Shown in pieces: positions 29,094 to 39,574 of a stretch of 64,000 nucleotides of DNA; within the stretch, counting starts at the first letter, position 1, and every line of letters begins with the position of its first letter. This DNA comes from a virus. The notes under the pieces are model-generated. The model saw nothing but the letters and a program-made list of their open reading frames with translations, did not search any database and was not told the origin of the DNA. The position numbers and the translations under genes were made by a program. The stretch covers positions 124,001 to 188,000 of IMG/VR virus record IMGVR_UViG_3300045747_000527; one strand, written 5' to 3'.

Positions 29094-29098
29094 TGTTG

Positions 29099-29173
29099 CG
29101 CGCGAGAAGAGATTCGAACTCTTATCCTCCAGGATCATTACTCCATGGCGCTCAACCGTTGAGCTACTCGCAC
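29099..29173 (-). tRNA. Atypical tRNA with enlarged anticodon arm, possible Ile(AAU)
   Basis: Acceptor GTGCGAG/CTCGCGC, D-arm and T-arm (AAGAG-TTCGAAT-CTCTT) are normal. The anticodon region is three bases too long: CCA-T-GGA GTAATGA TCC-TGG, a six-pair stem with one bulged T. With loop GTAATGA the anticodon would be AAU, rare in bacteria and phages. Confidence 0.65.
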
Positions 29174-30770: not shown

Positions 30771-30774
30771 GTAG

Positions 30775-30848
30775 TACCTGAGATCGGATTCGGACCGACA
30801 CTGTCTACCTCCTCGGGGTAGTGCCTCTTCCAGTTGGGCTACTCAGGC
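30775..30848 (-). tRNA. Atypical class I tRNA, anticodon GAG (Leu-like)
   Basis: Cloverleaf complete: acceptor GCCTGAG/CTCAGGT, anticodon arm CTACC-CCGAGGA-GGTAG. The anticodon reads Leu CUC/CUU, but the variable loop is only five bases (ACAGT) and position 33 is C, not U. True charging identity is uncertain. Confidence 0.65.
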
Positions 30849-30937: not shown

Positions 30938-31028
30938 TCCCGGCGAGAGGACTCGAACCCCCAACCTCGCGCTTATCTGGCGCTAAACGGTTCATAAGGC
31001 CGCCGCTCTACCATTGAGCTACACCGGG
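30938..31028 (-). tRNA. 91-nt tRNA with two anticodon-like hairpins (Ile-like)
   Basis: Acceptor CCCGGTG/CGCCGGG, normal D- and T-arms. Two hairpins stand between them: GCGG around CCTTATGAA, and GCGC-CAGATAA-GCGC. The second closely matches the anticodon arm of tRNA-Ile(GAU) at 39501. Removing 19 bases gives exactly 72 nt. Either Ile(UAU) with a giant variable arm or Ile(GAU) with an insertion. Confidence 0.65.
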
Positions 31029-32131: not shown

Positions 32132-32202
32132 TACCGGCGGTGGGGATTGAACCCACTCCATCCGCTTATGAGGCGAACGTCCCAACCACTCAGGTCGCCG
32201 GC
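32132..32202 (-). tRNA. tRNA-Met(CAU) or tRNA-Ile2
   Basis: Acceptor GCCGGCG/CGCCGGT, anticodon arm TTCGC-CTCATAA-GCGGA. CAU may be elongator Met, or Ile2 if C34 is lysidinylated; sequence alone does not decide. Confidence 0.85.
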
Positions 32203-36561: not shown

Positions 36562-36634
36562 AGCGCCTAGCGGAGATCGAATCCGCTGCCTGAACCTTGG
36601 CAAGGTCCCGTGCAACCACTTACACCTTAGGCGC
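36562..36634 (-). tRNA. tRNA-Gly(GCC)
   Basis: Acceptor GCGCCTA/TAGGCGC, anticodon arm GGACC-TTGCCAA-GGTTC, T-loop TTCGATC. Confidence 0.92.
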
Positions 36635-36711: not shown

Positions 36712-36794
36712 AGATCCGGTGACCACACTATTTGCCGCCGTGTACTTTGGCGTCCTCTTTGAGCCTAAACCCAAAGGGGAGCTGGTCATCGGTG

Positions 36795-36882
36795 AGGAAA
36801 GGGGGAGAGTCGAACTCCCAGCAGTTGTTAGCTGCGTCTGTTTAGCAAACAGGTGCGAAAAACCGATATTCGCGTCCTTTCC
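36795..36882 (-). tRNA. tRNA-Ser(GCU)
   Basis: Class II; acceptor GGAAAGG/CCTTTCC, anticodon loop TTGCTAA, long variable arm, T-loop TTCGACT. Confidence 0.92.
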
Positions 36883-38239: not shown

Positions 38240-38770
38240 CTACTCCAACACAATACCGAGGCCCATCTCCTTCTTCATGTGGACCAGCGCCTCTGCGTTC
38301 CCCATCGCATCATCCACTGGATTATGGGTGTGCTTGGTCTGCCGCAGGAACTTGAAATTCTTGAAGGTATCTTTGATCATCCCCTTGTACAGCGACCCGA
38401 GGTTCGTGGAGCTGTGCCCGAAAGGACTGTGCCCCAGGAAGTGGTAGCAGTACCAGGTGACGAACATGTAGTCGTAGCCGTTGTTGTCCGAGATGAACAT
38501 CGGCCGCTTGCCCACGTTGTGCTTCATGACCCACGCGTCGAATTCCCGCATTACCGTCGCGGCATCGTCGAAGGTCTCCGTTTGGCCGCGGGTCAGACCA
38601 GTGACCTTTAGGGCCGCCGGTTGCCAGTTCGCGGAGATAGGAGCCAGGCATCCGTAGAAGGTAATCGGCGTAGACAGAGGCTCTCGTACAAGGACAGCGC
38701 CAAGCTGAATCATGGAGTAGTCCCCTGGGCTGGGACCATCAGTCTCCACATCAATCATGAAGTAGCTCAT
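38240..38770 (-). CDS. DEDD-type 3'-5' exonuclease (RNase T/DnaQ-like)
   Basis: 176 residues. Exo I motif MIDVETDG (Asp7, Glu9), Exo II region MFISDNNGYDYMFVTWY with the second Asp, and Exo III HNPVDDAMGNAEAL with His and Asp. These acids bind two metals for 3' trimming of DNA or RNA. In a tRNA array, an RNase T-like tRNA 3'-end or turnover function is attractive, but a DNA proofreading role cannot be excluded. Confidence 0.8.
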   Translation of the reverse strand: MSYFMIDVETDGPSPGDYSMIQLGAVLVREPLSTPITFYGCLAPISANWQPAALKVTGLTRGQTETFDDAATVMREFDAWVMKHNVGKRPMFISDNNGYDYMFVTWYCYHFLGHSPFGHSSTNLGSLYKGMIKDTFKNFKFLRQTKHTHNPVDDAMGNAEALVHMKKEMGLGIVLE

Positions 38771-39498: not shown

Positions 39499-39500
39499 AG

Positions 39501-39574
39501 TTGCGGCAGTGAGAGTCGAACTCACGATCTCGCGCTTATCGAGCGCTTGCTCTGACCAACTGAGCTATGCCGCA
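39501..39574 (-). tRNA. tRNA-Ile(GAU)
   Basis: Acceptor TGCGGCA/TGCCGCA, anticodon arm GCGC-TCGATAA-GCGC (C33 rather than U33), T-loop TTCGACT. Confidence 0.88.

What the first reader, a model, noticed from the sequence alone, without database searches (positions are those of the whole stretch)
30938..31028. 91-nt tRNA with two anticodon-like hairpins
Between D- and T-arms lie a hairpin with loop containing UAU (Ile AUA) and a second with loop CAGATAA, nearly identical to the anticodon arm of tRNA-Ile(GAU) at 39501. Removing 19 bases gives an exact 72-nt tRNA. It could be an insertion event, a recombinant of two Ile tRNAs, or a tRNA with a very long variable arm.
Basis: seen in the sequence. 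Interest (0 to 1): 0.75.

Follow-up and report, generated by a model that had tools for sequence, protein, structure and literature searches.

The report
Two-anticodon-arm isoleucine tRNA of phages
This phage gene encodes an isoleucine tRNA with two anticodon-like arms. It belongs to a widespread, apparently undescribed family in phages and plasmids, in which one arm (UAU) probably reads the codon and the other (GAU) probably tells the host enzyme which amino acid to attach.

Summary
In detail: minus strand 31028..30938 is a 91-nt tRNA with two hairpins between D- and T-arms, H1 (loop CUUAUGA, anticodon UAU) and H2 (loop CAGAUAA, centred on GAU). It is not a private insertion or a recent recombinant. 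It belongs to a large family of 87-96-nt tRNA-Ile(UAU) genes in phages (Vibrio, Acinetobacter, Aeromonas and Synechococcus isolates, many IMG/VR contigs), Xanthomonas and Alteromonas plasmids and bacterial genomes. In a sample chosen without looking at H2, 63 of 70 distinct genes have GAU at positions 34-36 of a 7-nt H2 loop; Leu/Ser/Tyr variable loops almost never contain GAU. H2's stem covaries, its T-arm linker is 4-5 nt (class I spacing), and it is enriched in C29-G41, an isoleucyl-tRNA synthetase (IleRS) determinant, whereas H1 is not. In samples chosen by H2 alone, H1 is essentially always UAU. Best explanation (inferred): H1 decodes AUA, while H2 mimics the tRNA-Ile(GAU) anticodon arm so that host IleRS charges a tRNA whose UAU anticodon it would reject, bypassing lysidine (TilS). 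No description was found in the open library. Against: H2 keeps A33, not U33, and often lacks A37. Charging has not been tested.

The parts
30938..31028 (-). two-hairpin tRNA-Ile(UAU), 91 nt, CCA not encoded
31022..31028 (-). acceptor stem 5' strand CCCGGTG, pairs with 30939-30945 (7 bp)
   Evidence: sequence; family helix 1, 99.5% paired
31005..31019 (-). D-arm GCTC-AATGGTA-GAGC
   Evidence: sequence; ARAGORN
30987..31003 (-). H1, decoding anticodon arm GCGGC-CTTATGA-ACCGT (U33, UAU, G37)
   Evidence: ARAGORN; H1 stem covaries in family
30994..30996 (-). anticodon UAU of H1 (reads AUA)
   Evidence: ARAGORN anticodon position 33
30968..30984 (-). H2, second anticodon-like arm AGCGC-CAGATAA-GCGCG
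   Evidence: identical 18-nt segment in L005; covariation
30975..30977 (-). GAU at positions 34-36 of the H2 loop
   Evidence: conserved in 63 of 70 distinct genes of an H2-unbiased sample
30963..30967 (-). class I-like 5-nt variable loop AGGTT between H2 and T-stem
   Evidence: sequence; 4-5 nt in 55 of 55 clusters
30946..30962 (-). T-arm GGGGG-TTCGAGT-CCTCT
   Evidence: sequence; ARAGORN
39500..39574 (-). tRNA-Ile(GAU) of the same phage, used for comparison; anticodon loop TCGATAA (C33)

Best explanation
It is a tRNA-Ile for AUA codons with a division of labour between two anticodon-like arms. H1 carries a canonical decoding loop (U33, UAU, usually A37) and pairs with AUA on the ribosome. 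H2 carries the signals that isoleucyl-tRNA synthetase (IleRS) reads on tRNA-Ile(GAU): GAU in the 34-36 frame of a 7-nt loop, often C29-G41 and A38. H2 is joined to the T-arm by a class I-length variable loop, so it could take the anticodon-arm position when bound to IleRS, while H1 takes it on the ribosome. A mobile element could thus have an unmodified UAU tRNA charged by a host IleRS that normally needs G34 or lysidine-34, with no need for TilS. SHOWN: gene, structure, conservation, covariation, H1-UAU/H2-GAU coupling, C29-G41 enrichment in H2, no TilS or IleRS match in the 191-kb phage record. INFERRED: charging through H2, alternative stacking of the arms, AUA decoding.
For: (1) V-loop-blind sample: 63 of 70 distinct genes have GAU at H2 positions 34-36; in the same loci GAT occurs in the variable loops of 3/160 Leu, 0/159 Ser and 1/50 Tyr. 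(2) H1-blind samples: with H2=CAGATTA, 108 of 111 tRNA calls are long Ile(UAU) and the other 3 are unrelated matches; with H2=CAGATAA, 97 of 106 are Ile(tat) plus one misparsed UAU gene, the rest being class I or chance matches. (3) C29-G41, a listed IleRS determinant (PMC9976931): H2 41/55 clusters, phage class I Ile(GAU) 26/49, H1 14/55, class I Ile(UAU) 16/62, other class I 125/1131; H2 vs H1 Fisher p=4e-7. (4) H2 stem covaries: 96.8% of cells paired, covariation 0.853 vs 0.171 shuffled. (5) H2-to-T-stem linker 4-5 nt in 55/55 clusters vs mostly 1 nt in Leu/Ser. (6) A73 in 50 of 54. (7) E. [quoted passage not shown] see also PMC4014445). (8) No TilS or IleRS in the phage record; 6 of 7 bacterial carriers have TilS.
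Against: No charging, decoding or probing data. H2 has A33 in 51/55 clusters, which IleRS mimicry does not predict, and A37 in only about half, although t6A37 is a strong IleRS determinant (PMC11938285). C4-G69 is not conserved and is G-C in this tRNA. Class I tRNA-Ile(UAU) without H2 is also common in phage contigs (111 of 120), so H2 is not needed in every host. Six of the 70 H2-blind genes lack GAU, and one more (L309) has GAU on a weak stem. Carriers are related by descent; 82% clustering only partly corrects for that. That H2 could occupy the anticodon position is a topological argument, not a 3D model.
Confidence: 0.58

Rival explanations
1. A class II tRNA-Ile(UAU) whose long variable arm, in the usual class II position, is recognised as a whole by a synthetase (or repels MetRS), with AGAU as a loop recognition motif rather than an anticodon mimic.
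For: Overall topology and length are class II-like; A33 is conserved together with GAU, suggesting that AGAU may be the motif.
Against: 7-nt loop with GAU in the 34-36 frame, a 4-5 nt linker before the T-stem and C29-G41 enrichment are anticodon-arm features, not class II arm features.
Confidence: 0.2
2. H2 is a decoy or shield against host tRNA-targeting defence: an Ile(GAU)-like loop without U33 that binds an anticodon nuclease or toxin without being cleaved, or protects H1.
For: Carriers are phages and plasmids; H2 lacks U33; some phage tRNA-Ile(GAU) also lack U33 (A33 or C33 in 10 of 49 clusters).
Against: Does not explain the exclusive pairing of H2-GAU with UAU tRNAs, or C29-G41.
Confidence: 0.12
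3. Insertion or recombination relic, or tRNA pseudogene, without function for the second hairpin.
For: In the window H2 matches the phage's own Ile(GAU) arm at 15 of 17 positions; G37 next to U36 in H1 is unusual.
Against: Identical H2 in a diverged phage; covariation and GAU conservation across more than 50 clusters; G37 also occurs in two other two-hairpin genes.
Confidence: 0.04
4. H1 is an intron-like insert spliced out to give a class I tRNA-Ile(GAU).
For: Leaving out 19 nt gives a 72-nt class I outline.
Against: H1 keeps a canonical YUUAURN loop and a covarying stem in the family; the product would lack U33. A splicing system was not searched for.
Confidence: 0.03

Closest known systems
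tRNA-Ile3(UAU) of Mycoplasma mobile, lactobacilli, bifidobacteria (PMC8450103, PMC4013482)
   Same: UAU anticodon without lysidine, reads AUA, A73.
   Different: Per the literature read here, M. mobile relies on an adapted IleRS (PMC4014445, PMC4810244); no second hairpin is mentioned. Here the tRNA carries an additional GAU arm and most bacterial carriers keep TilS.
Class II tRNAs (Leu, Ser, Tyr, SeC)
   Same: Extra stem-loop between anticodon arm and T-arm.
   Different: 7-nt GAU loop, 4-5 nt linker to the T-stem, anticodon-arm-like stem; ordinary class II arms in the same loci have mostly 3-6-nt loops and about 1-nt linkers.
Bacterial tRNA-Ile(GAU)
   Same: H2 shares GAU, the 7-nt loop, the C29-G41 preference and frequent A38.
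   Different: H2 has A33 instead of U33 and is the second of two arms.
tRNA-Ile2(CAU/LAU) plus TilS
   Same: AUA decoding, Ile identity.
   Different: Uses lysidine-34 to switch identity; the two-hairpin tRNA has no C34 and would not need TilS.

Membership tests
tRNA (RF00005) | fits the curated tRNA covariance model above cut-off | tested here: met
   53.2 bits vs 29
tRNA (RF00005) | functional core: A14, 15-48 Levitt pair, T-loop TTCRA, G18-G19 | tested here: met
   A15-T48 in this tRNA; A-T or G-C in 34 of the 41 family clusters with A14
tRNA-Ile(UAU) | UAU anticodon in a canonical 7-nt loop with U33 | tested here: met
   CTTATGA; note G37, rare in the family
tRNA-Ile(UAU) | charged with isoleucine | not testable with these tools
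   needs an aminoacylation assay
Class II tRNA (Leu/Ser/Tyr type) | stem-loop in the variable region | tested here: met
   H2
Class II tRNA (Leu/Ser/Tyr type) | about 1-2 nt between the variable stem and the T-stem | tested here: not met
   4-5 nt in 55/55 clusters vs mostly 1 in Leu/Ser
allo-tRNA (8/4 or 9/3 acceptor branch) | acceptor/T-stem 8/4 or 9/3 | tested here: not met
   7/5 in this tRNA
IleRS substrate of tRNA-Ile(GAU) type | GAU in positions 34-36 of an anticodon-type loop | tested here: met
   in H2, not H1
IleRS substrate of tRNA-Ile(GAU) type | C29-G41 | tested here: met
   H2 of this tRNA has C29-G41; 41/55 clusters
IleRS substrate of tRNA-Ile(GAU) type | C4-G69 | tested here: not met
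   G4-C69 here; C-G in 22/54 of the family
IleRS substrate of tRNA-Ile(GAU) type | U12-A23 | tested here: met
   U12-A23 here; U-A in 27/54 of the family
IleRS substrate of tRNA-Ile(GAU) type | A37 (t6A) next to GAU | tested here: inconclusive
   A37 in this H2 but in only 27/55 clusters; modification not testable

The most novel reading that the evidence does not exclude
A naturally two-headed tRNA: one arm is the anticodon for the ribosome, a second arm is the anticodon for the synthetase, and the same RNA switches which arm occupies the anticodon position. This would separate codon reading from amino-acid identity within one molecule.
Probability: 0.5. Interest if true: 0.95.

Novelty: new variant of a known kind. 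Interest (0 to 1): 0.82.

Why it matters
Nearly all bacteria read AUA with a lysidine-modified tRNA; an unmodified UAU tRNA is thought to need an adapted synthetase. A tRNA that carries a second, synthetase-facing anticodon would be a different solution, would show that the anticodon read by the enzyme and the one read by the ribosome can be separate, and would offer a design idea for engineered tRNAs. It is directly testable, because carriers include cultured phages of Vibrio, Aeromonas, Acinetobacter and Synechococcus. Standard software reports these genes simply as tRNA-Ile(tat), which may be why they went unnoticed.

Tried and rejected
Pairing between the H2 loop AUAA and the anticodon loop UUAU: rejected, because CAGATTA loops lack it. 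General link to the 3'-5' exoribonuclease found beside the plasmid copies: rejected, only in Xanthomonadaceae. H2 as a copy of the same phage's Ile(GAU) arm: true by similarity in the window only. Recurrent H2 with other anticodons: none found in two H1-blind samples. E. coli genomes: no match. Minimum-energy folds give the five-helix form for some members but not all, so covariation was relied on instead. Relatedness of the window phage to GenBank phages by nucleotide: no match. In-silico deletion of hairpins was not done. M. mobile UAU paper PMC3575796 not held. Literature searches gave no description of the family; only open-access papers are held.

Full report
WHAT IS THERE. The gene lies on the minus strand, 31028..30938, in a cluster of 36 ARAGORN-called tRNA genes of a 191-kb virus record. 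Read 5'-3': acceptor CCCGGTG, TA, D-arm GCTC-AATGGTA-GAGC, G26, H1 GCGGC-CTTATGA-ACCGT, TT, H2 AGCGC-CAGATAA-GCGCG, AGGTT, T-arm GGGGG-TTCGAGT-CCTCT, acceptor CGCCGGG, A73. Rfam's tRNA model scores it 53.2 bits (cut-off 29). The record has no TilS or IleRS match. AUA makes up 18% of Ile codons in the longest window ORFs.

RELATIVES. A motif search for the H2 core found a 210-kb phage contig (L005) whose tRNA-Ile(UAU) has a diverged body but the identical 18 nt AGCGCCAGATAAGCGCGA. Wider patterns and ARAGORN gave 53 loci. Named carriers are Vibrio phages Thalassa, Luma, V6Aob and henriette 12B8, Acinetobacter phage qsb1, Aeromonas phage 1233, Synechococcus phages S-SRM01 and S-SKS1, plasmids of Xanthomonas (pXCV19, p66_OSU778; pCuR with a longer version) and Alteromonas (pAMCP48-600), and bacterial genomes including Pseudoxanthomonas and Stenotrophomonas. 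Six of seven bacterial carriers have TilS; the seventh is a 1.3-Mb assembly.

UNBIASED TESTS. Because the first search demanded CAGATAA, I searched with the H1 and T-arm motifs only. All 126 tRNAs called at such sites, counting those in loci fetched earlier, are long Ile(UAU). Among the 70 distinct ones that are new, 63 have GAU at positions 34-36 of a 7-nt H2 loop with at least 3 of 5 stem pairs; six others lack such a GAU hairpin and one (L309) has GAU on a weak stem. In the same loci GAT occurs in the variable loops of 3 of 160 Leu, 0 of 159 Ser and 1 of 50 Tyr tRNAs, whose loops are mostly 3-6 nt. Searches with H2 and T-arm only, blind to H1, gave Ile(UAU) in 108 of 111 cases for CAGATTA, and for CAGATAA 97 of 106 plus one misparsed UAU gene. 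The exceptions were chance matches or class I tRNAs, three of them tRNA-Ile(GAU) with A33. So H1-UAU and H2-GAU go together.

STRUCTURE. H2 pairs covary (39 sequences, 96.8% paired, covariation 0.853 against 0.171 in shuffles, all slid controls low). In a 30-sequence alignment all five helices covary (95.3% paired). The H2-to-T-stem linker is 4 or 5 nt in 55 of 55 clusters, the class I variable-loop length, whereas Leu and Ser arms mostly have 1 nt. The 15-48 pair covaries as A-U or G-C in 34 of 41 clusters with A14. H1 keeps U33 in every cluster and A37 in 54 of 55; the window's G37 is seen in two other members.

WHY IleRS. The identity literature lists C29-G41, C4-G69 and a pair at 12-23 as stem determinants of tRNA-Ile (PMC9976931). 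C29-G41 is in H2 in 41 of 55 clusters, in phage class I Ile(GAU) in 26 of 49, in H1 in 14 of 55, in class I Ile(UAU) in 16 of 62 and in other class I tRNAs in 125 of 1131. Thus the arm with GAU, not the decoding arm, has the IleRS stem signal. E. [quoted passage not shown] A second arm with GAU would answer that need. That the arms exchange places in the anticodon position is my inference from the linkers and loop frame.

WHAT DOES NOT FIT. H2 has A33 in 51 of 55 clusters and A37 in 27 of 55, while t6A37 is a strong IleRS determinant (PMC11938285). A33 might keep H2 out of decoding, but that is a guess. C4-G69 is absent here and U12-A23 holds in half of the family. Class I UAU tRNAs without H2 are also common in phage contigs; their hosts and charging are unknown.

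VERDICT. The mechanism (H1 for the ribosome, H2 for IleRS) is the best-supported reading, confidence 0.58. I found no earlier description, within the limits of an open-access library.

Noticed in passing
window 39500-39574 (-); L332, L349, L408: Phage class I tRNA-Ile(GAU) with C33 or A33 instead of the nearly universal U33 (10 of 49 clusters).
   Followed up: partly
window 29098-29173 (-): tRNA-Ile(AAT) with loop GTAATGA: A34 and G37 are both unusual for a bacterial-type Ile tRNA.
   Followed up: no
window 30774-30848 (-): tRNA-Leu(GAG) with C33 and a short class I-type variable loop.
   Followed up: no
L442:5001-5640, L443:8001-8640, L444:5369-6103, L153, L157: In Xanthomonadaceae plasmids and genomes the two-hairpin tRNA stands alone beside a 3'-5' exoribonuclease gene; in pXCV19 and p66 it sits about 30 nt upstream of that gene.
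   Followed up: partly
L444:6001-6103: pCuR version is 103 nt with a longer, 6-bp H2 stem; ARAGORN calls part of it tRNA-Ile(gat).
   Followed up: no
L459, L323, L366, L207, L082 and others: Phage tRNAs with Asn, Thr, Cys, Gly or Met anticodons but long variable arms; some look like Ser-type bodies with another anticodon.
   Followed up: no
L015 (ARAGORN tRNA-??? taac, 97 nt): tRNA with a hairpin of about 20 nt apparently inserted in the anticodon loop, possibly intron-like.
   Followed up: no
window 36562-36634, 36792-36882, 32132-32195 (-): tRNA-like genes missed by ARAGORN but found by covariance models: by eye Gly(GCC), Ser(GCT) and a CAT-anticodon tRNA.
   Followed up: partly
L222, L271, L278, L302, L304, L315: Long tRNA-Ile(UAU) genes whose second hairpin lacks GAU; possibly other solutions or ordinary class II arms.
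   Followed up: no
window 38240-38770 (-): 3'-5' exoribonuclease-like gene inside the tRNA cluster.
   Followed up: partly
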